A stretch of DNA of 64,000 nt from Hypomesus transpacificus (Eukaryota > Chordata > Actinopteri > Osmeriformes > Osmeridae): contig NC_061072.1 of NCBI RefSeq assembly GCF_021917145.1, positions 12,605,133 to 12,669,132 of the forward strand, written 5' to 3'. The position numbers and the translations under genes are program-made. This document shows positions 18,666-63,224 of this stretch, piece after piece. Each line of letters begins with the position of its first letter. Position 1 is the stretch's first letter. The notes under the pieces were generated by a model that did no database searches, was not told the DNA's origin, and was given only the letters and a program-made list of their open reading frames with translations.

Positions 18666-18858
18666 GGGAGTCAGATGGCTGAGCGGTGAGGGAGTCGGGC
18701 TAGTAATCGGAAGGTTGCCGGATCGATTCCCCGCCCCGCCAAATGACGTTGTGTCCTTGGGCAAGGCACTTCACCCTACTTGCCTCGGGGGGAATGTCCC
18801 TGTACTTACTGTAAGTCGCTCTGGATAAGAGCGTCTGCTAAATGACTAAATGTAAATG
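18666..18858 (+). mobile_element. tRNA-derived SINE, full-length copy
   Basis: The head resembles a tRNA-Leu/Ser gene with an A-box-like TGGCTGAGCGG and a B-box-like GGATCGATTCC. A conserved body (tccttgggcaaggcacttca) and the tail ataagagcgtctgctaaatg, followed by a short (TAAATG)-like end, complete the element. A second copy of the same family is at 61906-62096. The family has the architecture of teleost SINEs; I do not assign a subfamily name. Confidence 0.85.
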
Positions 18859-42629: not shown

Positions 42630-45600
42630 ATGGACACGAGAGACACAGCCCCTGATTCGTGGGAGCTGGAAGAAGATGCCGAGGCCCCGGCTGCCGCGGA
42701 ACTCCAGTCCGCTTTCGCCGCTCTCAACGTAAATGCCACGCCATTTGTCCCAAATGTGAACGCGGCGGTGTTTGTCCCGACTTTTCCACAAAGCAGTCCT
42801 GCAGAAACATCAGTGTCTGGCGGTGACGGTAAGTTTCCGATTGTAGAAGTCAGCATCGGAATAACAGGATTTGACAGGGGTGACAGCTGGTAGTCTACGA
42901 TGCTAGCCAGTTAGCTACTGTAGCCACCAGCTAGCCAACCAAGTTAGCCAACCAGTTAGCTAACTTGTAAATGTCCGTTCTTTGCTATGTGGCAGCACTG
43001 AATGGAAGTTTATCTTAATATGCCCTAACTAGTTTAGATAAATATGAATGTAACATTCAGAACAGTCTTAACGAACTATGACCGTACAATGTTTGAATAA
43101 TTCAAGTCTAATAATAATACCAAGTTTAACAGTGAGTGACATTGTCTGGTCACACTGGACTTGAGTCATACAACATGCGTGTCAGGTTAGATTTTTCTGG
43201 CATATGCATCTGTATTCACAGGTGCCGCAGATACAATTGCCTGTATGGAGGTGACAGAATCAGTTGGTATGTAGCCTGTCATTTTTGCTTTTTAATGTAC
43301 ATCTAACCATTCCATACAGAAGGTCATTATAGTAGACCATGGAACTGGAGATGTATGGACACTGCTTTGCTTCTCAAAAATCTGCCCAGACATCAGGGCT
43401 TCAACGGATTTCCAGATCTACATTGACTAAATTAGGTTGCCCTTAAACACTGTTTACTTCTCATTTCATCAGTTTGATAAATCTCCCTGCTTAGCTTCAC
43501 TGTGCACTTGAGTGTACAGGGCCTACTCTGAAACACAGGCCAGGCCTTCCAGTCCAAACTGTGAGGTTTGGCAATTGTATGATGCAACACTAAAGGCCCA
43601 GTATCTTAAAATATACCTTTTCCCCTCTCTTCCACATGTGGAATCGGGCATGATATCAAGCTTCAGGTGTGGCAACTCCAAAACTAGAATGTAACTTGTG
43701 GGTTTTTTTCGACTCTGTTCAGGAAGTATTGCAACAGAGTTGTGAGGTGCCATGTTGCAGCGTGCTGCCGGTGTCCAACTGCATATGTGCTGATGTCAGG
43801 TGTTCACATTTTGGCCAGAGTGCTGCTCACATCTACTCAAGTTACAGGCCTGATTTATCAGTCAGCCTGACACCTGCAACTTTAGCTTGCCAGGGAGGAA
43901 CAGGAGAGTGAGACGAGAGACAGAAAATGGATGTGGAAGGAGAGAGAGGAGTGTGAAGGCCTGATTACAAATATGTAATTCTAGTGGTATAATCACCTTA
44001 TTGGTTTAGACATTTAAAAATACACTAGCCAACCTCTTTGTTCTGAGGAATGCATGTTTTTTGACTTGCAAACACACTAAGATTTTAAACAAATGTCAAA
44101 GTTGATCAAGTCATAAAACGTCTATCACCTTTTGGATTGTTGAATTGATAAGGCTACAAATGATTACATATTAATATACCGTGAAATCCAAATCTTTAAT
44201 AGTATTTACAGGTAGTATTTGACCTATGACTAATGTAGACCATCTTCATTGAACTGATGCTGTCTGTCCCTTTAGCTCCTGTGGAAAACGGAGGCACGGA
44301 GACGGAGGTTATGGCAGAGCTTGTGGAGGAGGAGACCTGGGATCAGAAGGAGGAGTCTGGGGACGCTGAGCCTGGAGGGGGTGGAGGAGGTGGAGGTGGA
44401 GGAGGAGGGTCTCAAGGGGCTGTGGAGGAGATACAGGGAAGGGGGGAGGAGGAAGAGGAGGAGGAGGAGGAGGAAGAGGAGATGATGGAGGAGGAAGAGG
44501 AGGAAATGCCCATGCCAAAAGTAGCCCCCTCCCAACCGGACGCCCCCAAGAAAGAGCATGTCAACGTGGTGTTCATCGGTCATGTCGGTGAGTTCCCACT
44601 GCCTGGTCTTTTTTCACCTGTACCTCATCTTTCTGTCTAGGAATTGTTTTCTACGGTGTAAATTGCTGTTGTACTTGTCTTTGAGAGCCAGTCCAGTTAG
44701 AGTCAAAGATAATCATACACAAATGTTTTATTCTTTTAACAACTACCGTCTGTACCAGATGCTGGCAAATCAACAATCGGAGGACAGATCATGTAAGTCA
44801 TTAGGCCTAAATGATATGGTTGGACTTTAATTACTACTTAAATTGAATTTATGGTAGATCTTCACAAACACATTCACATGTCAGTCTGGTATGATGTGTT
44901 GATGCTAGGTACCTGACAGGAATGGTGGAAAAAAGAACCTTAGAGAAGTATGAACGAGAGGCTAAAGAGAAGAACAGAGAGACATGGTGAGCTCGTCTTT
45001 ACTTAAAACAATTTATTTTGAGATGTGTGCTGGTATTTTAAACAGAACATGGAACCCTTATGACATCAGCTGTCTCATCTCCCAGGTACCTGTCGTGGGC
45101 GCTGGATACCAACCAGGAGGAGAGAGACAAGGGCAAGACTGTGGAGGTGGGCAGGGCCTACTTTGAGACGGAGAAAAAGCACTTCACCATCCTGGACGCG
45201 CCCGGTCACAAGAGCTTTGTGCCCAACATGATTGGCGGGGCATCTCAGGCTGACTTGGCAGTCCTGGTGAGGGAGACTCACTTTTTCTATGCTGAGTCAT
45301 TCTGGACTGCAGTAGGGGGATAGCATAGTCCCGCAGGGTATTATCTGTGTAAAGACTGAACACAACACTGTGGCTCTACTAATGACAGTGTGGCAGGTTC
45401 AAACATGACTGATTTTGTATGGGGCTCGTTTTGCCAGAGTCAAATCCATAAACCCGATAAATCTGTAAACCTTTTGTTCATAACTGTTATTTAAATCTTG
45501 TGAATTAAGATGTCCCCCATTAATTAGCAACATTTATATTCAGCCTAGAAAACTGACACCTCTGAAACAACATGAAATATAAATGTTCCCTGGATTCCTG

Positions 45601-48600
45601 TAAATTATTGAAACAACATTAATTTACAGTATGGATGATTGTCTATAGCACTCTTATGCATACCTTCCTTACAGGTTATCTCGGCCAGGAAAGGGGAGTT
45701 TGAGACAGGTTTTGAGAAGGGCGGCCAAACACGGGAGCACGCCATGCTGGCCAAAACAGCCGGAGTTAAACATCTAATCGTGCTTGTCAACAAGATGGAT
45801 GACCCCACTGTCAACTGGAGCCTGGACAGGTGAGGTCAAGTTTAAGTGAAAACATTTAGAATGATTTAGGAAATGAATAGTTACTGAGCAATGCTACAAA
45901 ATGCATACATAATGTGTTATCGTTTTTACTGCAATCTGAGCCAGCCCTCCCTCTGCCTCCTTCCACTAGGTATGAGGAGTGCAAGGAGAAGCTGGTGCCC
46001 TTCCTGAAGAAGGTGGGCTTCAACCCAAAGAAGGACATCCACTTCATGCCCTGTTCTGGGCTTACAGGGGCCAACCTGAAGGACCCAGTGGAGGAGTGCC
46101 CTTGGTATACGTACGTATCTCCAATATGGATGGTTCCTCATTGAATCCTGCATTGAGGCACATTGATATATCATCAGTAGCATCCTGGAACAAAAGTTAC
46201 TGGTTTACTGTATGTCTACTCACTTATACTCGTTATCTTTCTTAAAAATCGGTCCATTGTTCTCAGAAAGATCACACGACTATCAGAAATGAGCATCCCT
46301 GGTCAGACAGTCAGTTAGTTCAGTCTTCATTGTCATAGCAGTCAACCAAACAAATTAGTCTCCTCTGTCATAAAACGGACTGATATTTATGAAGCTGTTC
46401 ACAGTACAGACAGTTATTTCCAACTGCCGCTAAGTAAAGATGATTAGAATCAATTCCAGGAGATTTATTTTGCTTCAGTAAAGGATTATAGAGGATTGTT
46501 TGGATTGATTCTCTCTTTCTCACTCTCCCAAACTCTCCTCCCTTCCCATCTCTCTCACTAGGGGCTTTCCATTCATCGCCCACTTGGACAGCTTGCCAAG
46601 CTTCACCAGACCCATGAACGGACCAATCAGACTCCCCATCGTAGACAAGTATAAGGTGGGGAACCACATCCTAGCACAGTCTCCCAGTTCCATACTACTG
46701 ACAGGCACGATCAGACAGCCCTGATTCCTTTACATGCACAATTCCCATGCCCAGTCACTATATCATTTTAGCATTCATGAAAAAGCATGCATGTACTTAT
46801 AAAACGTATGGGGAATTACATTTTTACTTCCAAACCGTCAAATTCATGGAAACCAAGCTTTCAGAATTGTCGTTCCATGTCCATCCCTCTTCCCTGTCTT
46901 GGTTCTTATCCTCTCAGAAGAGGCCCCACGGTCCTGGGTGTCCCTCCAAGATCCCCACATACATACACGCACACACACACACACACATTCACACTCCTGC
47001 ATCACTCAGCTCTTTGGCAGTAACTTCAGTAGTGTGTGGGCGTAGTTTTGGAGCCGGAGGAGAGATGGCTGGGAGGAGGGAAAGCTATGGAATTAAGATA
47101 TGTTATAGCTTTCTCAGCAGGATTTTCACAGAGCTTAACACACACATACACACAAGCAGATACACGGGTGCAAGTTGTTGTGTAAGGGTGTTATGAAAGC
47201 GAAGATCTCTAACTGGGGCCGATGTTCATTGGAGGTAATGAGATTACTGTGGTCCAGGTAATTGTAGACGCTGGTTAGGAGGATAGGCTGGTTGTTGCTC
47301 AGCCAGTTTCTAACTGCTACACAAGGGGATCAACAGACAAAGATTCTGCACTGCTACAGATATAAATTAAAGATCACGCAACCATATAGTCTGGGTTCTT
47401 AGATTTCTCTGAACCAATTAAGTAGGCTTTAATTTTGTGTTTTTCAGGACATGGGCACAGTGGTCCTGGGCAAGCTGGAGTCAGGCTCAATCAGCAAAGC
47501 TCAGCAGCTTATTATGATGCCTAACAGGGTAAGACTACACACCCACACATTGTCCATGGTGAAGCACTATCTTTTTTTGTGCATGGAAGAGTCAAAAGAC
47601 AAAATACATGCATTTGCATTGACACCATGAACATGCAGTAGTTTTACATATATAGTGTGGCCATGCAATGACAGTAACACATATGATACCTGGAATGATG
47701 TCATGTAGTGGTCTGGTGGATTGGTCTTATTTACATAATGATACGGGGAAACAGAGGACGCCAGTAATGACACCCATTTGTAATGATTGCGCTAGCACAC
47801 CGTGGAGGTGCTCAGTCTGCTGAGTGACGACGTGGAGACGGACGATGCCACCCCCGGGGAGAACCTCAAACTGAGGCTGAAGGGCATCGAGGAGGAGGAG
47901 ATCCTGCCTGGCTTCATCCTCTGCAACGCAGAGAACCTCTGCCACTCCGGACGCACCTTCGATGCCCAGGTAGGAGCGCCGAGCAAGTGGAACAGGATTT
48001 TGTCTACCTCTACTGAGATTAGAGGACATTTTGTCCACCGAGGCCACAGAAAGTGTAGGGTTACCGTTGCTAATGAGGCCTTTGTGATGCCGCTACAGTA
48101 TACATTGGCTTTGTTCTGTTTCATAGCTAGTCCTTAACATACCAACACACACACACACACGTTTAAATGTGTGTTTTGGTATGTATTGTATTATACTATA
48201 TTCTGAGCTGATTTGTCTGTTTTTGTCGTTTTGTTTCTAGATCGTCATCATTGAACACAAGTCCATTATCTGTCCAGGTTACAATGCAGTCTTACACATC
48301 CACACTTGTATTGAAGAAGTACAAATCACAGTAAGTCTCTTAAAGTTTAGCACCACAAAACAGCCCAGACATTAAATACCTTGCCTTGGTGGCCTCTGGT
48401 TATTTAAAAACAAAATACAAAGGACACGGACATGCATTAGTTTGTCTCCATTAACTGGCTTGACTCAAATGCTTCTCAATCTTTAGGCCTTAATCTGTCT
48501 GGTGGACAAGAAGACGGGGGAGAAGAGCAAAATGCGGCCTCGCTTCGTCAAACAGGACCAGGTGTGCATCGCCAGATTACGGGCAGCAGGGACCATCTGC

Positions 48601-48806
48601 TTGGAAACTTTCAAGGACTTCCCTCAGATGGGAAGGTTTACCCTCAGAGACGAAGGTGAGCGGGGTGAAGATGTGCCAGAGAGAGAGAGAGAGAAAGTGA
48701 ATGTGTGTGAGTGCCTGGATGTATTTGCTCACTGCCCTTCTATTTCCTTGCAGGTAAAACCATTGCTATAGGCAAGGTGTTGAAGCTGGTACCAGAGAAG
48801 GACTAA
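42630..48806 (+). CDS. gspt1: eukaryotic peptide chain release factor eRF3a (GSPT1)
   Basis: Fourteen coding exons: 42630-42828, 43222-43266, 44276-44587, 44759-44792, 44909-44986, 45086-45266, 45675-45829, 45970-46110, 46562-46655, 47448-47528, 47796-47969, 48241-48330, 48487-48655, 48754-48806; 601 aa. eRF3 is the GTPase partner of eRF1 in translation termination. The N-terminus carries overlapping PAM2-type PABP-binding motifs ([19 protein letters not shown], about 32-51), then Gly-rich and Glu-rich tracts in the third exon. The GTPase domain has G1 GHVDAGKST, G3 DAPGH, G4 NKMD and switch segment DKGKTVEVG; domains 2 and 3 follow ([31 protein letters not shown] at the C-terminus). EF1A-like families are excluded by the eRF3-specific [20 protein letters not shown] block. 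rsl1d1 follows directly, as on human 16p13.13. Confidence 0.96.
44380..44510 (+). repeat. gspt1: coding GGA/GAG trinucleotide tract in gspt1
   Basis: An in-frame run of GGN codons is followed by GAG/GAA codons, encoding about 13 Gly and two Glu blocks in the disordered N-terminal extension. Confidence 0.9.
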
Positions 48807-49413
48807 AGGACAGTAACTTGGAGATCCTGGAACGGGCGTTTTGATCGAGGAGAAAGCAGCAGACCCAGCTAGCCACTCTCTCTCTCTTACACACCGTTAT
48901 CTATGGAGGGGGGTGAGGAAGAGGAGAACACAAATGTGAAAGAAAAAAAGAAAGACTGAATCAGTTTTTATGAGGAACAATACTAATCGCAAGACCAGTC
49001 CAGTGTGTCAGCTTTCTCATATTGAGACCTCAGCTATGCCACTATTGTAGCTAACTAACACCCTGTTTTCTGGCCAACCTCATGTTTAGCTGGCCCACAT
49101 TTGTTTTGGAATGGATGCAGAGGTGCTTTGTTTGGGAATAGTGGTATTGATCTGATATTGTGTGTGGATCACAGTTAGTCTATAATCATGATTTGCAAGT
49201 AAATCACTACATTGAAGAAAACAATGCCAAATGGACAATGTTTTGGTCATAATTATCCCCAACCAAAATCCTAATCGTGATCGACACGCATTTCAAATAC
49301 TTTATATGGATGCACTATGAAACATGACACTTAGATTGGTCATGCATTCACACACATACAAGACACTCATACGCAAACACACAAACGTGTCATTTTCAGT
49401 GAACAACAATGGA

Positions 49414-49419
49414 AATAAA
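49414..49419 (+). terminator. gspt1: polyadenylation signal of gspt1
   Basis: AATAAA followed within 25 nt by a GT-rich element (ctctgtgtatgttttgtttt). Confidence 0.75.
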
Positions 49420-49590
49420 ATAAATTGATAAAACGACTCTGTGTATGTTTTGTTTTTTTAAACCGTTATAATTATATATTTTGTTCATAGCTAGACGTTC
49501 GTTTTGGGGTAAACGCTGGTCAATTGTGTCATTAGCTTGTTTTTGAATAAAGTTGGGAGAGTTCAAAAGTTTTAATGACGTAGGAACAAG

Positions 49591-49601
49591 TGCGCATGCG
49601 C
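49591..49601. promoter_or_regulatory. rsl1d1: palindromic NRF1 site of the rsl1d1 promoter
   Basis: TGCGCATGCGC is a perfect NRF1 consensus 33 bp before the rsl1d1 ATG, with a CRE-like TGACGTAG at 49576-49583 beside it. NRF1 is a known regulator of housekeeping and ribosome-biogenesis promoters; binding here is inferred from the motif. Confidence 0.6.
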
Positions 49602-49634
49602 CTTTACGGTATACGTACACGTGAAGCAAGAGGC

Positions 49635-52600
49635 ATGGCAGAAAAAGTAGAAGATGTGGTCCTGGACCAGGCGCAGGTAAAAACTTCAATTGAGAAAAAA
49701 TTGAATGTCGTTCTATGTTGCTGAATTTACCAATACAGATTTTATAAGAATGCTTGCGATGTGTTAACATTCCGGTTCATTTTAACTACACTGTGATGTT
49801 GGCTAGCTTCCGCTAGCCTAGTTAGCTAAGGTTAGCTTGACAAATGATCTTGACTAGAACCGCTCGCTTGCAAACTAATAGTTGTCCAGTTGGTTTATCA
49901 GTTGAGTATCTAATTTGCAATGCCACCCAGTAACATTTAGAGCTGTTTCATAAGTCGTGCAAGGTTAACAATTTGATCAAGTATGTCTCACGTGTCATGT
50001 TTTACTGCGTGTCTCGCACAGGTGAAGAAAGCCGTCCAGGCGCTACAGGCGTTCGTGAAAACCACGTCCACCCAGGACACTCTTTTGGAGGAGAGCCATC
50101 AGTTCTCCCTACTCTTCACCCTCTGGAAGATCCCAAAACAGGCCCAATCCATTCGCATGTGAGACCCAGCCTTATCCTCCTAGTCCAAGGCATTGTGTAC
50201 CTAACTCAATGTAGATGACCCACAGAACTGTATGGTTTACGTCATCTGACACTTGTCAAACAATTTTCCAGAATGTATTTGTAATTTTTGTCTCAGTGTG
50301 ACATGGAAGGGATATAACAGTTCATCTTAAAATGACAATTTCAAATATTGTCCATACTCACCCATATGTTGCAATCCTCCAGCCCCCTGCCTCATGGTCT
50401 GCGCTCAGATGTAGATGAAGTGTGCCTGTTCACCCGAGACGAGCCCAAAATGACCTCTGATCAGACCCAGCGGTTCTACAAGAAGCTGCTGGAGGAGAGG
50501 GGTGTCAAGAACATCACAGAGGTACAAGTCCAACACAGCTGGAGTTTCATCTACCCCTGCATGATAAGCCTAAATGCTCCCAGAGCAGTAACATTACAAT
50601 GCAGGATGTATGTTGTATTTCATAAAGTCTGAATCTGTAGTTTGTACTTTCTCACACTACTTGGGGAGATGAAAACGTTGGTATGTATTGATAACGGTAA
50701 CAGCAGCACCCCAGCAAACCCTGTCCTCCAGTGTCAGTGTTGGACACGGGCAATGCCGGTGCCACAGAGACTCAAAGTATATCCAGATGGACCTCCCTCT
50801 TCCAGTGGAGCCTGTCTCTACAACTTTGAAACAAAGCATGTTTATTTGTATTTTTTTTAGTTTTATAAAATGACATACCAGAAAGGATTATAGACGACAT
50901 GTTGTTTTTCCATGTGTCCTGTCCAGGTGATCCCGTATAAAGTGTTGAAGACAGAGTACAAGCCATATGAGGCCAAGCGCAAGCTGCTGGGGAACTTTGA
51001 GATGTTCCTTTCTGATGACCGTATCCGCCGCCTGCTGCCCTCCCACCTTGGCAAACACTTCTATGAAAGGAAGAAGTGAGTCCAACTTCAGCTGTGTTAC
51101 CATGTATGCACCCATGTTAGCGGTTCTTAGAGTGGTAATGTTTGTATATTCTTGCATCCTGTAATCGGGAGACAGATTTGCTCGTGAAAGGAAAGTTGAA
51201 TGATGGGACACAAATTGTTCCTCAGTGGAATACAATGCTCTGTAGAATGACTTGTTTTCTCTAAATAGGGATCCTCTATCAGTGAACCTGCAGAGCAAGC
51301 ATTTGGCCAGAGACATCCAGAGACTGATCCAGGGCTCCACCATGAAGGTGTCCAAGAAGGGCAGCTGCTGGTGAGCCGTCACACTGCTCCTGGTCACTGG
51401 AGACACAACTTGAACACAGACATGAATGTTACCTACACTGTACATCTTACAACAGTTCCATAAGCAGCACCCCAGCAAACCCTGTCCTCCAGTGTCAGTG
51501 TTGGACACGGGCAATGCCGGTGCCACAGAGACTCAAAGTATATCCAGATGGACCTCCCTCTTCCAGTGGAGCCTGTCTCTACAACTTTGAAACACAGTCG
51601 TAATCAGGCAGTTTTGTAACATTAAACTATGGAGGTCTTTTCTCTTGTTTTACCGAACGACAAATTAAAAGTTCTTCTGTTGTGCACTCCTAGCTCAGAT
51701 CATGCAACCAATCTTCTTGTAATGTGTTTTTTTTGTTGTTATTGTAGCATGGCTCGCGTGGCCCACTCGGGGATGACCACGGAGGAGGTGACAGAGAACA
51801 TTGAGGCCACAGTCAGCACAGTCGTCAACAAAATACGCCTGGTGAGTTCCAAGCCAACATTTGCCACGTGAATGGATTTTACCACCCGTCCTAAACGTTT
51901 TGGATGGAGAGTGAACCTGATGATGCCTTTTTTTCCTCAGAAAGGAAAGGTGATCAAGGTCATCCACCTGAAGAGCCAATCCTCTGTGGCTCTGCCCATC
52001 TACACGTCTGATCTTAGTCATCTGACTATAATAGAGGATGCACAGAGGGAGGCCAGGAAGGCCAAGGTGTGTGAGACTAAAATAATCTAGAGCGATGGTG
52101 GATATTGTTGTCTGCGTGTGTGCATAAGGGAGAGACTGTGACTGTAAGTGTTTGAGCCTACCCTATTCTCCTACTGATAACCGTGTGTTTTTCTGTGTGG
52201 CTACAGAAGGCCTCCAGCAAGCTGAAGAGAGCCAGGAAGCAGCAGACGTCCACAGAGAAGACGGAAGCAGAGGAGGAAATTCCAGAGCTGGTTCCCATAG
52301 TAACGCCCAGCAAGAAAGCCAAACTGCAGGTCAGTGTCACTCATCTAAAGTCAGTCTGAAGCTGATTTATATTATTGCACACAAAGAAAACAATGTTACC
52401 GTGTTAAGTACAAAAATGTTAAAGTGCATAAATTGACAGGTTGTTTTACCTACAACTACAATGGTTGAAATCTTTCCTCTCTCCCCCATAGACACCACCC
52501 CAAAAAAAGAAAGTACTGGAGAAGGTACCTAAACCACCAGTAGGGAAGAAAGGACAGAAAGCTAAAGCCAAGCTGGCCAAGAAAAAGGGTACAAGACCCC

Positions 52601-52638
52601 CTTCCCAGAAAATGAAAAGGAAGGTGGTCAAATCCTAA
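49635..52638 (+). CDS. rsl1d1: ribosomal L1 domain-containing protein 1 (nucleolar)
   Basis: Nine coding exons: 49635-49676, 50022-50158, 50383-50521, 50927-51075, 51269-51370, 51748-51841, 51941-52066, 52207-52329, 52492-52638; 352 aa (human about 490, which has a longer Lys-rich tail). RSL1D1 (Cic1/Utp30 family) is a nucleolar factor of pre-rRNA processing, also tied to nucleostemin and senescence. The L1 domain spans about residues 15-270: [29 protein letters not shown], the [20 protein letters not shown] helix, [32 protein letters not shown], and the strand-helix [15 protein letters not shown], followed by a basic tail ([28 protein letters not shown]) likely to be a nucleolar localisation signal. 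Introns 3 and 5 each contain an identical 132-nt segment described separately. Confidence 0.95.
50702..50825 (+). ncRNA. candidate intronic H/ACA-type small RNA, copy 1
   Basis: A 132-nt stretch (50702-50833) in the intron 50522-50926 of rsl1d1 is repeated without a single difference at 51463-51594, although the flanks are unrelated. The 5' half folds: GCACC (50706-50710) pairs with GGTGC (50758-50762), and CCCTGTCC (50719-50726) pairs with GGACACGGG (50742-50750, one bulge), leaving a pocket-like internal loop. A hinge-like AGAGAC (50766) follows, and ACA at 50820-50822 is followed by three bases, as in H/ACA RNAs. The 3' hairpin is weaker and the H box is not canonical ANANNA. Its target and family are unknown. 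Confidence 0.5.
51463..51586 (+). ncRNA. candidate intronic H/ACA-type small RNA, copy 2
   Basis: Second copy of the element, identical over 132 nt (51463-51594), in the intron 51371-51747 of rsl1d1. ACA is at 51581-51583. Intronic location in a nucleolar-protein gene is typical for vertebrate snoRNAs. The alternative is a non-functional local duplication. Confidence 0.5.
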
Positions 52639-52884
52639 TGTTTGTCTCTGTCCCTCTTTCCCTCGCTCATTATGAACTTTGTACCATAAAGATTCAAGTG
52701 ATGTCATGGATGCTGACATTTGTTAAGTAGACTCCCAGGGCTGGTTATAAAGATTAAACATAATGGTGTTGTGTCTAGTCTTTTCAAGGCTCCAGTATCC
52801 ACGAAAGCCACAAATGAAAATCATACAGCTTTGTTGAAACAGAGCAAATAACGAAAGGTCATTTGTGTCCCAACGTTTCTGGTA

Positions 52885-52890
52885 AATAAA
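52885..52890 (+). terminator. rsl1d1: polyadenylation signal of rsl1d1
   Basis: AATAAA about 250 nt after the stop, followed by T-rich sequence. Confidence 0.6.
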
Positions 52891-52899
52891 TAGTTGTTT

Positions 52900-53809
52900 T
52901 TTCAAAACATCTTTTGTATAATTCCAGGTTGTATATTAAAGGATGTTAAAACATTTTTGATGTGTGTTATGTATTCTATATCTTGACTCATAATTTCCAC
53001 CCATTACCAACCACTCATTGTATGCTGTGTAGTGCTACTTTTTTTCCACCCCTACCTATTGAGGCATTGTGTTGTACTACTACGTAGGGCTGCGTTAGCC
53101 TTGAGGTGTGTTTACCCTCGGAGACCAGTCAGCAGAGCCTGGCTGGATCAGATGACTCTATTGTCAGTGAGGATCATAACGTGCCTGTACACCTGCTGTC
53201 TGCCTGTTTCAACAAGGTAGTGTTTGTTTAGAATTTGTATTAATTTAGATTTGTAATTGATATTCTGAAAGCTTTTTATTGAAGTACCACAGCCATAATG
53301 GCTTGCAGAAGTATGACAGACTGTTGAAGTCAGTTTAGTGGTGATACGAGTGTAGGTGGTGTCTATTGTAGATGACTATGATGTTTCTACACCAGTGGTC
53401 ATTTGAGACCAGACACAAGCAGGTGGTCTGTATTCATTGGCCCTATCCTACTCCAGGTCTATGTTGACAGTGAGGCTGGCTGGAATATCCTGGGTTGAAA
53501 GTAAACTGAGGGTAGGTACGATAGAGGTAAACACTGAGCAACTGTCGACCACAGACTCGGCTACAACTATTTTAAACTGCTATCTTGACAACTGGTAGAT
53601 GTGAATATCGATGCGTCAGTAATATATCTAGCCTATGAGCATCAACTGAAGGACAAACAGGATGTAATGAATGCTAACTTGCACTGTACTGGTAGTTTGG
53701 ATGTTGTTTATTTACGTTTGATTATTTTTGGAATAAAATCCGCCCCTCCTGCAGCAAAAGGGGCCAGACAGAAAAGGTGCGGTCCTTCTTCAGAACAGAA
53801 CCTGTCAGG
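52900..53809. other. intergenic region and 5' flank of the pirt-like gene
   Basis: No supportable coding exon. A donor-like caacaag/gtagtg near 53217 could end a non-coding 5' exon of the downstream gene, but no clear acceptor pairs with it. Confidence 0.3.
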
Positions 53810-54154
53810 ATGACTTCAGAAGACACTGCCCTGCACACAGACCTCATCGGATCCCAAGATTCTACTGGCAGAACCGTCTCTCCAACTCCAGAACCTCCCC
53901 GCTGGACCTACTTTCATAAGCCCATCATCGTCATGGTGATGGGGGGCCTGATGTCTGGTGTGGGGGCTGTTCTATTTCTGCTCCACTACCTGGGAGTGAC
54001 GGAGACACCCCACGCCACCGCCCCTGCCTGTCTGTCCATCGGGCTGATGTTTGTGGTGGTGGGGCTGGTCTGGGTTCCCATCCTCAAGGAGAAACTCAGA
54101 CGGACAGGTCTGGGGGGCTGCAGGGCTAGGGAAGGTTCTAATAGCAGTGTGTGA
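53810..54154 (+). CDS. pirt: phosphoinositide-interacting protein (PIRT)-like membrane protein
   Basis: Single coding exon, 114 aa (human PIRT 137). PIRT is a two-pass membrane protein of sensory neurons that binds phosphoinositides and modulates TRPV1/TRPM8. Two hydrophobic segments are visible: KPIIVMVMGGLMSGVGAVLF (about 40-62) and CLSIGLMFVVVGLVWVPIL (about 76-95), followed by a basic stretch KEKLRRTG fitting a lipid-binding C-terminal tail. The junctions KPIIVM.GG and GLVWVPI.K match PIRT. The N-terminus is diverged and the tail is shorter than in mammals. An in-frame ATG at 53777 could add 11 residues; 53810 is preferred because the upstream frame has no family resemblance. Its neighbour, the tmem238-like gene, is also beside PIRT on human 17p. 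Confidence 0.72.
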   Translation: MTSEDTALHTDLIGSQDSTGRTVSPTPEPPRWTYFHKPIIVMVMGGLMSGVGAVLFLLHYLGVTETPHATAPACLSIGLMFVVVGLVWVPILKEKLRRTGLGGCRAREGSNSSV

Positions 54155-54657
54155 CATATAAATACTGGGAGAATTTTCCTGACACAGATGAGCCCTGTTG
54201 GCTAAATATAAATGAAGATTCATTTTAATAAGTATGCTGGAACTACCCTGACACATGGAATCACAAGAGTGGAACGTAGAAGACGTTGTATCAGACCATA
54301 GATAATCCTGATTGTGAAATAATAAGTAGGCTTATGCAAGATCATAAGATTGAGGGTTGATTAATAAAATGCGATCTCACTTATTTTTATCCTTCTGAGA
54401 TTACTTCGGAAAGACGTGTAATAGAATATGATAAACTTTTATGGGCGAAATTTCATACATCTCCCACGAGTTGGTGAACTTTGAACAGTTTTACAATAAT
54501 CTTTTGTACGCGTCTCTGCAAGTGCTCACTCGCGTCTCCGCTCCATGCGCCAGGATTCTGGATCAACAGTTCCCCCTCAGGAATTCGCAATTACCCCTCA
54601 CAACTTTAGGAAATCAAAGGTAACTTCTAAAGAGGTGTTATTCATTAGGCCTACATC

Positions 54658-55176
54658 ATGGTGGGTGTACCGGAGACAGTAATTGAGAGGAGGTTTCGGG
54701 GAGTTGGCCGTTGCAAGTGCGCTTTTTGGTTTGCTGTGGCGCACGACATACTTGGAGCGTTAATACTTCTGACAGGGGTGTTTGCAGGATTCTTCATCCA
54801 CGATTTGTTCATCTACGCCGGTGCAGTTGTCATTTTCCTGAGCCTTATCTGGTGGGTCTTCTGGTACTCGGGGAACATCGAGGTTCCTCCAGAGGAACTT
54901 GAGGACGACGTTGGCATGGTCAAACTAAAGAACCGAGGAATTAGCGGAGTGGTCAGAAAAGTGTCTGACCGCCTCACCAACGGAATAAGAAACTCTTTCA
55001 GAAGAAATGGAAGGGCCAACGGAGAGGGCACCGGGCCCATGACAACGCCACCGCCTTTGAAGGAGAGTAACTCAACCGCTACTCAACAGGATCCAGCAAT
55101 GTCGCTCTCGGTTATATACGAGAACACCAGAGCTGCTCATTCAAATGAATTTGTCAGGGAGACCCTGGCTGTATAA
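54658..55176 (+). CDS. tmem238l: TMEM238-family two-pass membrane protein
   Basis: Single exon, 172 aa. Two membrane segments: WFAVAHDILGALILLTGVFAGFF (about 24-46) and FIYAGAVVIFLSLIWWVFWY (about 51-70), followed by the family signature SGNIEVPPEEL (TMEM238 has YTGNIEIS..EL). The opening GRCKCAFWFAVAHDI also resembles TMEM238. The 100-residue C-terminal tail is hydrophilic and has no recognised domain. The function of the family is unknown. The symbol follows from the position next to the pirt-like gene and is less certain than the family assignment. Confidence 0.75.
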   Translation: MVGVPETVIERRFRGVGRCKCAFWFAVAHDILGALILLTGVFAGFFIHDLFIYAGAVVIFLSLIWWVFWYSGNIEVPPEELEDDVGMVKLKNRGISGVVRKVSDRLTNGIRNSFRRNGRANGEGTGPMTTPPPLKESNSTATQQDPAMSLSVIYENTRAAHSNEFVRETLAV

Positions 55177-56038
55177 TTGGATGTCTTGGCCTGTTCATGG
55201 GACTATACATGAATGGGACTAAACGAGCATGAAATAATGATCAGTGTAGATCATTGTAGATGGACATATAGACATTTGTGACTTTTTATGGTACAGCCTT
55301 CTCTTTAGAATGCCCAATTACACCCAAAAGGGAATATAAGTGTTTGTCTTGTTGGTAATGATTAAGCAACATCAAGGTCTTCTCTGAACAGGATCCATAT
55401 GTCATCTTATCTGATAGATAAACAAGTAGACTTTGCACATGTCACTGATGGTTGAAAATATGATGTAGACTGCAATGTGTAAGATACACGTTAGAGTGTC
55501 ATCTGTTTTCTGAGTGTTTATTAAAATGTAGCATAATAGGCACTCTATGGAAATTGCTTAACTGAACTGAATTACAGCAAATTTGCAATAATTAGTTTAT
55601 TTGTACAATAGTTGTTAATATCACAATTTAAACACATGAAATGTAAGTGCATGTTTTTCATCGACTATTTAAGTAAAACAATGTTAAAAAAAACGTGTTG
55701 TACTTGAAGAATGTAATTTCTCAAGACTGTTCATTTATCCATGAGTGAACTCAAAGTATGTGATGGTTAGTAATATGGATGCACACATAAGGGTCTAGTT
55801 CCTCTCCTTACGAAATATCACCAGTTTCTTTTGGGGCACAGGGACTTCCCCTAAGATATTTACATATTCCTAAATCTGTAATAAAACACCAGGTCTGTCA
55901 GAAAACAAGCCATGAACTGTAAAGTACATCATTACAGTGCCAGATCTAATTTCAGGTGATGGTTCAGATATCATCATTCAGGGTCTATTGTTCAGATGAT
56001 CCTATCATTGTAGTTGTACTGTACAGTGTAGGCCAGTG
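55177..56038. other. tmem238-like 3' UTR and intergenic region
   Basis: AT-rich, no supportable coding sequence. The short first exon of tnfrsf17 with its ATG at 56039 follows; its promoter must lie here. Confidence 0.4.
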
Positions 56039-57516
56039 ATGTCTGAGGGAGAATGTGGCCAGGGTTTCTACTACGACGGCCTGGTTGAGGAGTGTCAGCA
56101 CTGCTTTCACAGATGCACCTCTCCGCCCAGAGTGTGCTCCAAATACTGCTCATTGCGTAAGTACAGTACTCATTTATATTGCTGAAGGTTGATCTGAGAA
56201 AGTATTTAGGGTTAAAAAAAAATCCAGAATGAACTCATCTAATTTCAATTCTCTTTGGCACTCACACATTAACAAATATCTATATATTTTTGTATTTATC
56301 ATTTGTAAAAAAAAACATTTACCAACTGTATTATATCCAGTGATCTATACAGTGATATTTTATACATCCATTATTTATGCATATGCATAAATATGTCCTG
56401 TATTTATTGCCAATATGTATTTCTGCTGGTCCACAGCATCAGAAAGCAAAGCCCCAGAGAGCCTAAACGTGCGGTTAATTCTGGTGTGGCTCTTCGTGTT
56501 CATGTTGGTCTTCTGCACTCTCATTCTCCTCCTGCAAATGCTGAGGAAGAAGTCATGCAGGCTGTTTCATAAAAACAAAGGTAACACAATACATGTGACA
56601 ATAGTCACAGACAAACAGTCCAATATAGAATAGGCAAATCACAATTAAGTGAAAGTTTGAAACCCTTTAAGATATCAATGTGTAATTAATTAAATAATAC
56701 CAACCAGACTGCACTCCACCTCAAGCTAAATATGGGAAACTACATAATAATAAGTTGTTTGTTGACATCTCCCTTCACATGACATCTGCTAAAAATATCT
56801 TATATTAGCCTGACTGACTCAGTATTGCTGTCTCTGATTCCCCCTGTCACTTATGGTATCATGAGTGGTTCAGCCTTGACTACCCATGCAAGAGATATCT
56901 GCATAAAACAATGACACATATTGATGCTGTTGTGAAAGCCTTTTCCCACTAGCATCTTAAAATTATGAATTTGTATTATTATTGGAAGCGTAATCCTGGA
57001 GCGTACAGACCAACTTATGCCAGGTGCTTGCGTTGTCTTGTCTTAAGAATTTCAGTGCCCAGTCTAACCTTGTGTTGTTCTGTGTACCTGACAATAAAAG
57101 ACTTGAACTTGAACTTCCACTTCAAAGAACAGAACTTTAAGAAGATAACACAAAGCATATTGTACATGTTGTGAACTCTTGTAAAACAGCTGATGCTATC
57201 TCTAAGTCCCAGACTGTTATTTCCCTCAGTATCTAAACCAGGGGGAGCTCATCAGTGTTCAGATGTGGACAGCCGCCCTGATAGCGCTGGGCAGAGAAAG
57301 GACGTGGATGGAAACACTGTGAGGAATTGGACGGGAGTAGAAGTCGACAGCCAGACCCAGTGCAACTCTAGCCTGCCTGTCCCATCCACGGAGGAGGGCG
57401 TTACCATACTGGTCACTACCAAGACTGTGCAGAACTTTGATGATTATAGCAGCTACTCAGAGCATGGCACAGATGAGGAGGAGACTGGATGGTGGTGGAG
57501 GGCTGGCGTTGTGTAG
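56039..57516 (+). CDS. tnfrsf17: TNF receptor superfamily member 17 (BCMA)
   Basis: Three coding exons: 56039-56156, 56437-56580, 57230-57516; 182 aa (human 184). BCMA is the plasma-cell receptor for APRIL and BAFF. It is a type III membrane protein without a signal peptide, as here: the protein starts directly with one cysteine-rich BCMA/TALL-1-binding domain, spacing C-GQGFYYDGLVEE-C-QH-C-FHR-C-TSPPRV-C-SKY-C, carrying the ligand-contacting DxL motif (DGL). The membrane segment is LILVWLFVFMLVFCTLILLLQML (about 53-75). The cytoplasmic part contains EEGVTILVTTKT, nearly identical to human BCMA, which separates it from its paralogues TACI and BAFF-R. The C-terminus (DEEETGWWWRAGVV) differs from mammals. 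snx29 follows, as on human 16p13.13. Confidence 0.9.
57036..57118. mobile_element. LINE-tail-like fragment
   Basis: In the second tnfrsf17 intron, a segment ending tgacaataaaagacttgaac with a short tandem tail (TTGAAC repeated) has the appearance of the 3' end of an L2/CR1-type retrotransposon. It is recognised by general appearance only. Confidence 0.35.
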
Positions 57517-57609
57517 CTGGAGATAATGCACGTGTGGTATGTGCATATGAAATGTTAACTGTGCGGGTGCAACCCCCCCTCACACACAAACACACGCACA
57601 CGGCACACG

Positions 57610-57610
<1 letters not shown>

Positions 57611-57690
<80 letters not shown>
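57611..57690. repeat. (CA)n microsatellite
   Basis: About 40 CA units just downstream of the tnfrsf17 stop codon. Confidence 0.97.
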
Positions 57691-57692
<2 letters not shown>

Positions 57693-58255
57693 CACGAACA
57701 CATAAAGCCCCATCCATGTTCCTGAAAAGTTTAACCTCCTTCACACAGGCACACAAACGCAACAGCGACTACAGTGGATCGTAAATGCACTACAGATCCA
57801 TTATCACTCCAACCCAATCATATGACTAAGTCGTGCCTTGTCATGTGACCAACAGCTCCTGTGCTGTTTCGCTTTCTGCTGTGACCGAGAAGTGTCACAT
57901 TTATTTACTATTGTTTCCTGCATTTGCATAGTATAAGTAGAAAATATCGTAAAATGATAGTTCGATAACCCTCATCTTCATCCCGGTTTATTTGCTATAT
58001 GTTTTATCTGCCTATGTTACTGTTAATGACTAGTAGCAGGCCTCAACCATGATAGCAACTGAAGGGTCCCCGCGGATGTGTTTATGAACCGGAGTGTCAT
58101 TGGCTCTTAGTTCGGAATACAGGGTTCGTTACCAAAGTAATGATTTGGGTAAGACATCCGATTACACAAATAATCTAACAGGCACCCTGACGCGTGGTGG
58201 CAAGAAGTCATTAACTAGTTTTGCATGTCAACACAAACGGACTTCGACTGTTATA
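57691..58255. other. intergenic region and snx29 promoter side
   Basis: No coding exon visible. The snx29 first coding exon contributes only seven bases, so its 5' UTR lies immediately upstream of 58256. No clear core promoter element was found. Confidence 0.35.
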
Positions 58256-60654
58256 ATGAACGGTGAGTTGTAGAAACACATGTGTTTGAACTTCGATAAC
58301 AAACTAGATGTTGAATTTTACCAGATTTTCGCTAGCAGTAGGCTACAAGGGCAACGCCTCGTGTGTATTCATCCGTGAATGTCATTTTACACTCTCGCCA
58401 CAGTCTGTAGCGAGAAAGCTGCTGTCTTTTTCCCCAATGCCGATCGAATTATTTCACCACAGTGGAGATAGGGAAGGATCAAGAAATACGTTGTGCAACT
58501 ATCATTAAGAGGCCAGCTGTTGATGTTGTTTTGGAGTGTAAAATGACTTTGTTCCTCATAGTTCTGTCTGACAGTGTATGTGAAATAAAGTCGTATAATC
58601 ATACACTAATAGTTTCTTTGTTGGTACCAAAACACAACACTGCATGAATGTTTACTTGAATGAATAACAAAATGATATCTCTTTATAACCTCTGTGTTTC
58701 AAAAACAGTACCTCCACAACCAGATAGTGACTTAGCCAGGCCAATATCATGTCACATACATCCCCATGGCATTCATATTTTACCTTATGTCAATCTCTTC
58801 TTTAGAAATGACATGTGTACCTTAGTGGTGTGTCTCTTAAATATTGCCTGCTGGCCTCTCCTTCACGTCCATGCTTCTGTGCTTTGTTCTTCAGGCACAC
58901 CTCTTAATGACACCAAGAGACAGCACCTTCTGGAAAGGCTGTTGGATGCTGTTAAACAGGTAGACATATTTTTCTCTAACACACAGATACTGGATGTTGT
59001 TAATGTTATCATACTCTGATATAGATATTCTCATCCCAATTCTTTACTTCACGTACTTTCAGCTCTCGAGGCAGTGAATTTAGGGGAATATATGGATATG
59101 AGTTTGTTGTACTGTAGTTGTATTTCCTAAACATGAGTTAAGATGCTTTAATCATGTTATGAAGCTATAGAAGTAGGTGAAACAGTGAGCCATATTTTAT
59201 GCCATTGTTTTATTAATCACGGTAATACACTATTTCCACAGTGTTGTTTGTTTTCTTGTTGGATGTCGTGCTTACAGTAGACTCACCCCTCTCTCAACTT
59301 GGCAGACTGCTTTGGAGGAAGTGAAATCCTGCTGCTTATTAGTAACCTGTTCTTCATATCTCCGCAGTGTCAAATCCGCTTTGGGGGACGGAAGGAGATT
59401 GCGTCTGATTCAGACAGCAGGTCAGTGCCTGTGCATGCGTGTGGGTGTGTGTTTTGCAAATGGTCAGTGTACCAACACCTCTGTGTGTGTGTGTGTGTGT
59501 GTTTGCAGGGTGATATGTCTGTGTGCCCAGTTTGAGGCAGTGCTCCAGCATGGTCTGAGGAAGAGCAGGGGCCTGGCTCTCACTGCTGCTGCCCTCAAAC
59601 AAGTGGCAGGATTCTCCAGCAAGACTGAAGCAGGTACTGGATAAACACACACGTCCAACAGACAACCATGTATGTGTTGTTTATATATAGTGGTAGTAGA
59701 CTACAACACACGTACATTGTGAGTAGGCTGAGGGGCCGTCGTTGAGCCCATAACTAGCAAGAGTTATATGAGCCATGGACCTTAATGAGAGTCACAGGAA
59801 ACAGGTGCTGGAAGGAGGGGAGGTCAAGTCACAGAGAAACCAGGTGCTATGAAACTAGAAGGTTATGCAACATTTATAGTCAAAAAAGCCACAAAGGAAT
59901 ATCCTCTCTCTTTCTCTGTCAGTTAGGCACCTGCTGTGCTCTTATTATGTGGTGAGTATCTTACTCACTGATTGGTGTGGAGAAGGCACAGTGGTTTGGA
60001 GAGATGGCTCAGTTTCCTAACCAAATATGTTTGTAGTTGTTGACTGCCACTGTTCACTGGGTTTAAAAGGATAATTGAAGTAAATGAATAATACTTTATG
60101 AAACTTTAGAAAGCCTTTGTGTATTCTGGTTCTCAGCCACCATTATGAAGCTAAAACATGCACGCTTCCAGACAAACACAGCTGCATTATTCCGACACAT
60201 TCTTCCCAGACCCCAATGATAATAATATGCTAAACAGCAGACCTCTATGCCACATTTTCTCTCTAATTACAATGGCTTTGCAAACTTTAGTGGAAACAGA
60301 CTTCAACACTGTCTTGCAAGTTGGGTGTGATTGAAAAAAAGTGTATGAACGGAGAGTTGAGGTGTTTAGCTTGTCACTACATGTGGTGAGATGACTTCGT
60401 GTGTGTGTGTGTGTGTAGTTCAATCTATGAGGAAATAAACTTGCAATTAGTCATGACCCATGAGGTGGTGAGGTCTGTGTGAAACTCTCAGGGGAACTGC
60501 TGCCAGATAGTGCCTGCGCCGTTCACACTTCTGCCCTTCAAATGGAAATGTTCTCCACACTAATAATTCTATAACAACACGGTCTACTCTGCTTTCTCAA
60601 CTTTGTTCTAATAGTGTACAATGATGCATAATAATCTCCATCCCCCTCTTCCCC

Positions 60655-60745
<91 letters not shown>

Positions 60746-63224
60746 ACCCTCCCTCCTCCTGTCTTGGTCTGTGCCTCCCACCTCCTCTGCTGCTCCCCTC
60801 GTTCGTCCTTCCCCGTGCCCCTCCTCTTCCAGAATTGACGTTCTGGTTCTATGTGAAGGAGCACCTGAACCGCCACGAGCTGCAGAGGTTCTACTCCCTG
60901 CGCAACATCTCCTCTGAGCTGGGCCGTGGCCGGGCCTGGCTGCGCTGTGCCCTCAACGAGCACTCCCTGGAGAGATACCTGCACACACTGCTCTCTGACA
61001 CAACACGCCTCAGGTTGGGTGCTTGTGTGTCGTGTGTGTGTATGCTTGTGGTGGTTGTGTGATTGCAAAGCCTGTTTTGTCCTCGATTCAGGCAGTGTGA
61101 GCGACACCTTGAACAATGCGTTGGTGTGTTGTTTGAGCTCTGTGTGTGTTATTGCGTCATTTGTCCCATTCACATGTGATGTCCAGCACCTACTATGAAG
61201 ACTGGGCCTTTATCCTGGATGAGGAGCGAGCCAGCATGCTGCCCACGATGGCTGCAGGTCAGTGCTTTCGTTGTGTGTTATTATGAACATGGTGGACCAA
61301 TACCATGGGAGATGAACATTGGCTGGGCGTCATTACTGTTTTAACATCATATCTTAGTCCTCATTTCTTCATAGGTTCTTAGACTTAGTCACAATGCGTC
61401 AGGACCAGTCATCATGTCCCCCTCTCCTCCCTACCCAGGCCTGAACTCTATTCTGTTTGCCATCAACATCGACAACATGGACCTGAACGGGGGGGTGACC
61501 CGGCCCGGGGGCTCCTCCGTGTCCCACCTGCTGAAGGAGTCCACCCAGGGCATAGGGAGCTTGTGGAAGGAGTCTACCCAGGGAGTGAGCTCTCTTCTCA
61601 GGGAGATCAGCACTGCCACGGCCGTGGTGCCCGGCTTCTCCCCGCGCCCCGATGGATCCTCCGACCCACTGCCTGTTCTGCCACGAAGCGCCTCTGCAGG
61701 TAGGGAGGGGAACTGCACCTGAGACAATGGAAGGGGGTGGTGAGGGCAAGCATGCTACCATGTACAACAAGGCTAGAAATTCCAGACTGTTCCTTGACTC
61801 TGATCACCAACTTTCTGATCCTTGGTGTTCTGCTGGACTTTTTCCATGTACAATTTGTATGTTGCCTTGGATAAAAGCGTCTGCTAAATGAAGTAAATGT
61901 AAATGGGGTCAGATGGCTGAGTGGTTAGGGAGTCGGGCTATTAATCAGAAGGTTGTTGGTTTGATTCCCGGCCGTGCAAAATTATGTTGTGTCCTTGGGC
62001 AAGGCACTTCACCCTACTTGCCTCGGGGAGAATGTCCCTGTATTTACTGTAAGTTGCTCTGGATAAGAGCGTCTGCTAAATGACTAAATGTAAATGCTGT
62101 CCTCCATAGACTCTGGCCTGAGGAAGGAGCGGCGGAGGAAGAAGAAGATCACCAACATCATCTCGTTTGATGACGACCTGGACGGAGGGGCTGAGGATGA
62201 GGAGGAAGGGGAGGACGAGGCGGGGAGGATGAGCACGAGAAAGAGTCCCACCGCTCCCCAGGGGAGTGTGGAGGAGGCTGTGGATCCACTGGAGCCTGCC
62301 TTCTCCCTCTTTTCTGCCCACAATGGGCTCTCCGAGCCTGGGATTGTCAGCTGGGCTGGATCCCCCCCTCCCTCCAGAACTCCACTGCCAGACACCAAGA
62401 GTGTTGATAATGAGGAAGAGGAGGAGGAGGAGGAAGTGGAGGTTTACAAGGGCAGAGCAGACACACAACCCATCCCTGAACAGTGAGTCTGTTTTTTTAC
62501 CAATGAGAATGGTCACTTAACCTTCTGATGAATAGTTCAAGTCGTTTGGTCAGTTGATTGGTTGATCTCATACATGGTTGCTGAAGCTCTAGCCTCTTGC
62601 CTTTGGGTTTGTGTGTTCTTCGCTCCACAGAGTGGTGGTGGGCAGCCTATCCAGCGTGTCCACGTGGAGCCCCCTACAGATCATGACTGAACATGACATC
62701 TCGGACATCCTCATCCCAGTCACATCCACTGACACCTACCCTCAACCAGGTGGTCCTCCCCCTCCAGCACTGGACACCACACCAGCCTCTAGCAACCTCA
62801 CACTCCATGTGATTGACTGATTAGTTAATTGAATACTTGTTTCACATTCCATTTGGTTTCAGCCAGCTCTGTGGAGGACACAGTAACACTTCCTGTCAAG
62901 GCCCCGCCCCCAGCCCTACCTGTCTCTAGTGACTGCAGTGTGTCTCAGCTACAGTTCAGGTACCGCACCAGTCCATGGGCTTGACCAATCTGGAAATGGA
63001 TCTTAAATACTAGAAACCAATGTGTTTCACCATTCTAGCTTTCTTCATCACAGTATGTTCATGTTTCTGTTAGTTACAGTGTTGGTTTGTTATTGCTTCT
63101 AACATTGGTTCTGCTATCTATACATTTCCTGGTCTAAACAGTATGGAGTCCAGTCCGCCAACCCATAAAGCCCAGCTCTCCAGTGTGCTGTCCACGCCAG
63201 GTCTGCCAGAGTCTATGACAGTGG
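58256..63224 (+). CDS. snx29: sorting nexin 29, N-terminal part (RUN domain)
   Basis: Eleven coding exons in the window: 58256-58262, 58895-58959, 59368-59420, 59509-59633, 60833-61013, 61187-61257, 61439-61699, 62110-62482, 62631-62749, 62863-62959, 63142-63224; about 478 aa before the gene leaves the window. The start MNGTPLNDTKRQHLLERLLDAVKQ matches SNX29, as do CQIRFGGRKEIASDSDSR and the RUN-domain blocks ALKQVAGFSSKTE, FWFYVKEHLNRHELQRFYSL, GRGRAWLRCALNEHSLERYL and YYEDWAFILDEERASMLPTM. Repeated LLKESTQG segments and a basic RKERRRKKKITNIISFDDD patch follow. The last exon ends GLPESMTV, just before the expected coiled coils and C-terminal PX domain. RUN and PX domains suggest small-GTPase and phosphoinositide binding on endosomes; the precise role is poorly defined. 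Confidence 0.95.
59481..59503. repeat. (GT)n microsatellite at an snx29 acceptor
   Basis: TG dinucleotides end five bases before the AG at 59507-59508 of the fourth snx29 coding exon. Confidence 0.85.
60655..60745. repeat. (CT)n microsatellite in snx29 intron
   Basis: About 90 bp of nearly pure CT, 90 nt upstream of the acceptor of the exon at 60833. Confidence 0.95.
61856..61905 (+). mobile_element. SINE tail fragment
   Basis: gttgccttggataaaagcg and tctgctaaatg followed by taaatgtaaatg matches the 3' tail of the SINE at 61906-62096 and ends exactly where that copy starts. It is either a truncated older copy or the site the second copy landed in. Confidence 0.65.
61906..62096 (+). mobile_element. 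tRNA-derived SINE, full-length copy
   Basis: Same family as 18666-18858, with an A-box-like TGGCTGAGTGG, a B-box-like GGTTTGATTCC, the shared body and the ataagagcgtctgctaaatg tail. It is in sense orientation within the snx29 intron 61700-62109 and ends 13 nt before the exon. Confidence 0.85.

What the first reader, a model, noticed from the sequence alone, without database searches (positions are those of the whole stretch)
50702..51594. Identical 132-nt twins in two introns of rsl1d1: candidate H/ACA snoRNA pair
The segments 50702-50833 and 51463-51594 are identical at all 132 positions, while the intron sequence on either side is unrelated. Intron DNA normally diverges fast, so the limits and identity suggest either a functional RNA kept by selection or gene conversion, or a very recent copy. 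The 5' half folds into a two-part stem with an internal pocket (GCACC/GGTGC, CCCTGTCC/GGACACGGG), and ACA plus three bases closes the unit. The host encodes a nucleolar ribosome-biogenesis protein, a typical snoRNA host. The weak 3' hairpin and non-canonical H box are arguments against. I do not recognise a known family.
Basis: partly seen in the sequence, partly recalled or inferred. Interest (0 to 1): 0.7.

Follow-up and report, generated by a model that had tools for sequence, protein, structure and literature searches.

The report
Identical SNORA55 snoRNA pair, fish rsl1d1
Two introns of a fish ribosome-building gene each carry the same small RNA gene, a relative of the known human RNA SNORA55 that guides chemical editing of ribosomal RNA; the fish version has lost the pairing that the family uses for one editing site and kept the half that may serve another site, for which one human study lists no known guide.

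Summary
In detail: 50702-50833 and 51463-51594 are identical over 132 nt and the match stops at both ends; in-register flanks are 15/60 and 15/60 identical. The twins sit in introns 3 and 5 of a 9-exon rsl1d1 gene; a DNA search of the 437-Mb genome found these two places only. The H/ACA reading is supported, but the family is known: both match Rfam SNORA55 (RF00431), 52.3 and 51.9 bits, gathering score 45. snoRNA copies within one host gene are usual; chicken has a three-copy relative in PABPC4 introns. Less ordinary: the 5' guide pocket that fits 18S-U36 in the family consensus is replaced (2/9 and 2/7 positions kept) and no longer fits U36. The 3' pocket keeps AUCC 4/4 and CUACAA 6/6; its best rRNA match is 18S-U681, a known human pseudouridine (yeast 632, snR161) whose human guide one 2023 table calls 'Unknown'. 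Pairing energy alone is not significant (53 of 200 shuffles do as well), so U681 is a testable lead, not a result. Expression and other fish were not testable.

The parts
50702..50836 (+). SNORA55-family H/ACA snoRNA, copy 1, in rsl1d1 intron 3 (predicted mature RNA; 50702-50833 identical to copy 2; ACA box 50831-50833 plus 3 nt)
   Evidence: Rfam RF00431 match 50706-50836, 51.9 bits, GA 45; identity; box coordinates
51463..51597 (+). SNORA55-family H/ACA snoRNA, copy 2, in rsl1d1 intron 5 (51463-51594 identical to copy 1; ACA box 51592-51594 plus 3 nt)
   Evidence: Rfam RF00431 match 51467-51597, 52.3 bits, GA 45; identity; box coordinates
50706..50762 (+). 5' hairpin of copy 1: lower stem GCACC/GGTGC as in the consensus; pocket CCAGCAAA (50711-50718) / CAATGCC (50751-50757) replaced relative to the consensus 18S-U36 guide
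50764..50769 (+). H-box position of copy 1, ACAGAG (ANANNA with the last A replaced by G); copy 2 the same at 51525-51530
   Evidence: place from the RF00431 alignment
50772..50829 (+). 3' hairpin of copy 1: open pocket with ATCC (50781-50784) and CTACAA (50818-50823), best rRNA match 18S-U681
49635..52638 (+). host gene rsl1d1, coding part in 9 exons, 352 aa; introns 3 and 5 carry the snoRNAs
   Evidence: exon model made by hand; Pfam Ribosomal_L1 5.9e-45; best PDB match Ribosomal L1 domain-containing protein 1, 8fkp_SL, E 1.6e-68

Best explanation
Both segments are genes for one and the same SNORA55-family box H/ACA snoRNA. The RNA is made from introns 3 and 5 of rsl1d1 pre-mRNA and packed with the H/ACA core proteins (inferred from the family). 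The pair arose by intron-to-intron copying inside the host gene. The identity is kept either because the copy is recent or because gene conversion homogenises the pair; that the identical tract ends where the predicted mature RNA ends is shown, which process did it is not. Its 3' hairpin is the working guide, and its best-supported target is pseudouridylation of 18S rRNA at the human-681 position (inferred; about 0.5 on its own). Its 5' hairpin has lost the 18S-U36 guide of the family consensus (shown at sequence level) and either guides something not found here or is structural only.
For: Rfam gathering-level matches over the full 135-position model for both copies (again over 45000-60000 with permissive filters). 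Two-hairpin fold, ACA box at the end. Introns of a ribosome-assembly gene. 2 genomic places, both here. Flanks unrelated, so the unit is the RNA. Element by element against the consensus: 5' lower stem 5/5 and 5/5, 5' pocket 2/9 and 2/7, 3' pocket right arm 6/6, left arm 5/7 with the stem-proximal AUCC 4/4. The eight 3'-pocket bases that would pair with U681 (AUCC, CUAC) are unpaired at 0.84-0.96 in the ensemble. The best site over recalled 18S, 28S and 5.8S is 18S-U681 for consensus and fish 3' pockets alike, 4+4 pairs (also with five snRNAs added and one mismatch allowed). The consensus 5' pocket in the register of the model returns 18S-U36 as best, the site that a chicken study lists for U69/ACA55. 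U681 is a known human pseudouridine (PsiScore 0.82 in one cell line), its human guide is tabled 'Unknown', and its yeast homologue counts out as U632, a pseudouridine guided by snR161.
Against: H box one base off strict ANANNA. Folding energy only modestly below shuffles (z -1.60, 15 of 200 as good). Pairing to U681 is only 4+4; 53 of 200 shuffled fish pockets and 65 of 200 shuffled consensus pockets do as well somewhere in rRNA (54 and 51 of 200 in the looser scan). The runner-up, 18S-U556, is close (-11.29 against -12.36). The consensus U36 pairing is itself reached by 34 of 200 shuffles (26 of 200), and when I gave its right arm one more G the best site became 28S U1523 (position in my shortened 28S) and U36 was not among the 8 of 13 sites shown: the positive control depends on the register. 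rRNA sequences were typed from recall. No expression data, no other fish.
Confidence: 0.88

Rival explanations
1. A recent copy by retroposition: one snoRNA is functional, the other is a young, still undiverged copy inserted as a mature-RNA-length piece (snoRNA retroposon).
For: 132/132 identity with limits at the RNA ends; introns otherwise unrelated.
Against: No A-rich tail directly after the ACA end of either copy, and the longest shared words of the 25-nt flanks are 6 nt (copy 1) and 5 nt (copy 2); 243 of 5000 random places reach 6 or more and 1521 of 5000 reach 5 or more. Chicken has a related snoRNA in three introns of one gene, and that study saw no trace of snoRNA retroposons in chicken. 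An old insertion could have lost tail and duplication, but then 132/132 identity needs conversion.
Confidence: 0.25
2. The 5' hairpin is not dead but retargeted: CCAGCAAA / CAATGCC guides a pseudouridine in an RNA not scanned here (snRNA variant, mRNA, other non-coding RNA).
For: Its lower stem is kept 10/10 while the pocket is replaced, as expected of a live hairpin with a new guide.
Against: No convincing site in recalled rRNA or U1, U2, U4, U5, U6: strict best -4.15 kcal/mol, reached by 185 of 200 shuffles; looser best in U4 at -16.03, reached by 41 of 200. The pocket pairs with itself (GCA/UGC, unpaired at 0.09 or less). The consensus 5' pocket does so too in the same calculation, so self-pairing is no proof of loss.
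Confidence: 0.3
3. Assembly artefact: the second copy is a mis-join.
For: Perfect identity of a 132-bp piece.
Against: Both copies sit mid-intron with different flanks in one 14.85-Mb contig, with exon order intact.
Confidence: 0.02

Closest known systems
SNORA55 / ACA55 (Rfam RF00431)
   Same: Full-length covariance-model match of both copies above the gathering score; 5' lower stem, 3' guide pocket and ACA kept.
   Different: 5' pocket no longer fits 18S-U36; H box one base off; host is rsl1d1, not PABPC4 (human host PABPC4 is recalled).
Chicken GGgACA4, three copies in PABPC4 introns 6, 7 and 10, listed as functional homologue of U69/ACA55
   Same: Several copies in introns of one host gene.
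   Different: Predicted 18S-36 guide, 7+4 nt in the 5' half; the fish pair lacks it. Its sequence was not seen.
Yeast snR161 (18S pseudouridines 632 and 766)
   Same: The predicted U681 target is the homologue of yeast U632.
   Different: Possible counterpart in function only; no sequence relation was tested.

Membership tests
SNORA55 (RF00431) | Covariance-model score at or above the gathering score of 45 bits | tested here: met
   52.3 and 51.9 bits, model positions 1-135 of 135
SNORA55 (RF00431) | Guide for 18S-U36 in the 5' pocket (reported function; not a criterion of the Rfam family) | tested here: not met
   At U36 the fish pocket forms 2 of 8 and 3 of 7 scattered pairs, none next to the upper stem; U36 is not among the 2 sites of the strict scan nor the 5 best of the looser one. 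So filed as a homologue of SNORA55, not as a U36 guide.
box H/ACA snoRNA | Two hairpins joined by a single-stranded hinge | tested here: met
   MFE and centroid fold of 50702-50833
box H/ACA snoRNA | ACA box three nucleotides before the 3' end | tested here: inconclusive
   ACA at 50831-50833 and 51592-51594 and RF00431 match ending 3 nt later; the real RNA end needs reads
box H/ACA snoRNA | H box ANANNA in the hinge | tested here: inconclusive
   ACAGAG at the aligned place, 2 of the 3 fixed A present
box H/ACA snoRNA | Stable RNA bound by dyskerin, GAR1, NHP2 and NOP10 | not testable with these tools
   no RNA data here
18S-U681 guide | Pocket pairing on both sides of an unpaired UN, about 13-16 nt before the ACA box (distance rule recalled) | tested here: inconclusive
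   4+4 pairs, best of the sites scanned, 13 nt from upper stem to ACA by count, but 53 of 200 shuffles do as well
snoRNA retroposon | A-rich tail and target-site duplication | tested here: not met
   no tail, shared flank words no longer than chance gives

The most novel reading that the evidence does not exclude
SNORA55's conserved half is the missing vertebrate guide for 18S pseudouridine 681 (yeast 632), and in this fish lineage the snoRNA sits in rsl1d1 and has given up its 18S-36 half, leaving a single-site guide kept in two homogenised copies. (Lowered from 0.45 in my draft because, on checking, the U36 positive control depends on the register and the runner-up site is close.)
Probability: 0.4. 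Interest if true: 0.5.

Novelty: new member of a known kind. Interest (0 to 1): 0.33.

Why it matters
As a snoRNA gene pair it is ordinary. It is useful as a natural experiment: one guide pocket of SNORA55 is replaced and the other kept, which singles out the 3' pocket as the conserved function and points at 18S-U681. One 2023 study lists no guide for that site, and the idea can be tested by deleting SNORA55 in human cells.

Tried and rejected
Rejected: unknown family; dispersed repeat; retroposon with tail and target-site duplication; rRNA and snRNA targets for the 5' pocket, including a register with GCA/UGC closed whose best site, in 28S, would need the conserved lower stem to open. A first element-wise comparison carried a typing slip of one base in the 3' half and was redone; use.

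Not done because the genome machine did not answer: RF00431 and RF00265 (SNORA69, recalled as the other U36 guide) over the whole genome, the fish's own 18S, and a look at pabpc4. So whether this fish keeps a further, more diverged SNORA55 with a U36 pocket is open.

Literature, all 10 searches: SNORA55, 52 papers, 30 listed, many on cancer by title; snoRNA+rsl1d1+intron, 7, none on an rsl1d1 snoRNA by title and abstract start; ACA55+snoRNA, 2; SNORA55+pseudouridine+18S+681, 0; snoRNA targets in vertebrates, 23, 20 listed; psi681 or U681 with others, 2; psi681, 3, one of them a fungal 25S site; zebrafish and HydraPsiSeq, 63, 20 listed; psi632 or snR161, 10; snoRNA gene conversion in zebrafish, 0. 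Papers opened gave passages only; PMC8522698, PMC8759569 and PMC12288042 held none of the words asked for. PMC9198423, PMC3349704 and PMC11084827 gave passages with nothing on the U681 question. Only open-licence PMC papers were searched; snoRNABase, snoDB and snoSTRIP, which may already pair SNORA55 with 681, were not seen.

Full report
Observation. The two segments are identical over 132 of 132 bases and the identity stops at the first base outside on each side. In register, the 60 bases before and after match at 15 of 60 each; blastn of the two introns gives the 132-bp match, and the next hit is at E 0.051. Among the 15 longest exact direct repeats of 40 bp or more in the window it is the longest; the next is 43 bp. 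A search of the whole genome (437 Mb, 376 contigs) with the element found 2 places, both these, at 100%. The tool warns that counts of repeats can be lower bounds, and such a search finds near copies only.

Host. A hand-made exon model with 9 coding exons from 49635 to 52638, 8 of 8 introns GT-AG, reads 352 residues without a stop. The protein is Ribosomal_L1 by Pfam, 5.9e-45, and its best match among solved structures is Ribosomal L1 domain-containing protein 1 (8fkp_SL), E 1.6e-68. Copy 1 is in intron 3, copy 2 in intron 5.

Identity. Rfam calls both SNORA55, RF00431, at 51.9 and 52.3 bits against a gathering score of 45, over all 135 model positions (again over 45000-60000 with permissive filters). 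No other snoRNA family reached threshold in the 64 kb. The fold has two hairpins and a free hinge, -39.4 kcal/mol; 15 of 200 shuffles fold as well, z -1.60. The H-box position reads ACAGAG, one base off ANANNA. The RF00431 match ends three nucleotides after ACA.

What changed. Set against the Rfam consensus as aligned, the lower stem of the 5' hairpin is kept 5/5 and 5/5, but its pocket only 2/9 and 2/7. The right arm of the 3' pocket is kept 6/6 and the left arm 5/7, with the four bases next to the upper stem, AUCC, kept 4/4. In a scan of recalled human rRNA the consensus 5' pocket, in the register of the model, returns 18S-U36 as its best site, -15.57 kcal/mol with 7+5 pairs. That is the site which a chicken study lists for U69/ACA55 and its chicken counterpart, three copies in PABPC4 introns 6, 7 and 10 (PMC2653536, passages read). 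A second register that I tried, with one more G in the right arm, gave 28S U1523 (numbered in my shortened 28S) as best, and U36 was not among the 8 of 13 sites shown. The fish 5' pocket finds 2 sites, neither better than -4.15, and 185 of 200 shuffled pockets do as well or better. At U36 itself it forms 2 of 8 and 3 of 7 scattered pairs. A looser scan gives a U4 site reached by 41 of 200 shuffles. So the U36 pairing is gone from this RNA.

What stayed. The 3' pocket of consensus and fish alike has 18S-U681 as best site, 4+4 pairs, -12.36 kcal/mol; the runner-up is 18S-U556 at -11.29. Its eight pairing bases are open in the fold ensemble (0.84-0.96), though the last A of CUACAA is paired (0.10 free). 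This must be read with its control: 65 and 53 of 200 shuffled pockets (consensus, fish) reach as good an energy somewhere in rRNA, and the U36 pairing itself is reached by 34 of 200. Energy cannot decide. What speaks for U681 beyond energy: it is a known human pseudouridine (PMC11541003, passages; PMC9941101, passage). A random U would be one in roughly one case in ten (105 known sites; 1036 U in my recalled rRNAs, whose 28S is shortened). The eight pairing guide bases are kept 8/8 to fish. The yeast homologue of U681 counts out as U632, a pseudouridine guided by snR161 (PMC9045821 and PMC8307265, passages). And the human guide of 681 is given as 'Unknown' in a table of PMC9941101. I could not see the snoRNA databases.

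How the twins arose. Copy limits at the RNA ends, unrelated flanks, no tail and no target-site duplication beyond chance fit cis-duplication with gene conversion, or a recent copy; they do not tell these apart. The chicken study describes intragenic duplication as the way in which almost all its snoRNA paralogues arose (abstract and passages).

Verdict. Its use is the lead to U681 and the clean loss of the U36 pocket. Gaps: no expression, no second fish, no genome-wide family search (machine unreachable), rRNA from recall. On checking the draft I lowered the novel reading from 0.45 to 0.40 and the U681 step from 0.55 to 0.5, because of the register and runner-up facts told above.

Noticed in passing
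18798-18851 and 62036-62089: Two UnaL2 LINE 3' tail elements, 64.9 and 59.6 bits, with a shared exact 43-bp stretch beginning at 18748 and 61986.
   Followed up: no
53810-54154, + strand: A reading frame of 114 codons encoding a PIRT-family (phosphoinositide-interacting) protein lies downstream of rsl1d1 (Pfam PF15099, 1.6e-12; translation).
   Followed up: partly
48754-48806, + strand: The last coding exon of the upstream gene ends [16 protein letters not shown], which I recall as the end of eRF3 (GSPT1); GSPT1 and RSL1D1 are neighbours in human too (recalled, not tested).
   Followed up: no
57527-57645, - strand: A weak mir-297 match, 30.1 bits against a gathering score of 90, on a GT microsatellite; most likely chance.
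   Followed up: no
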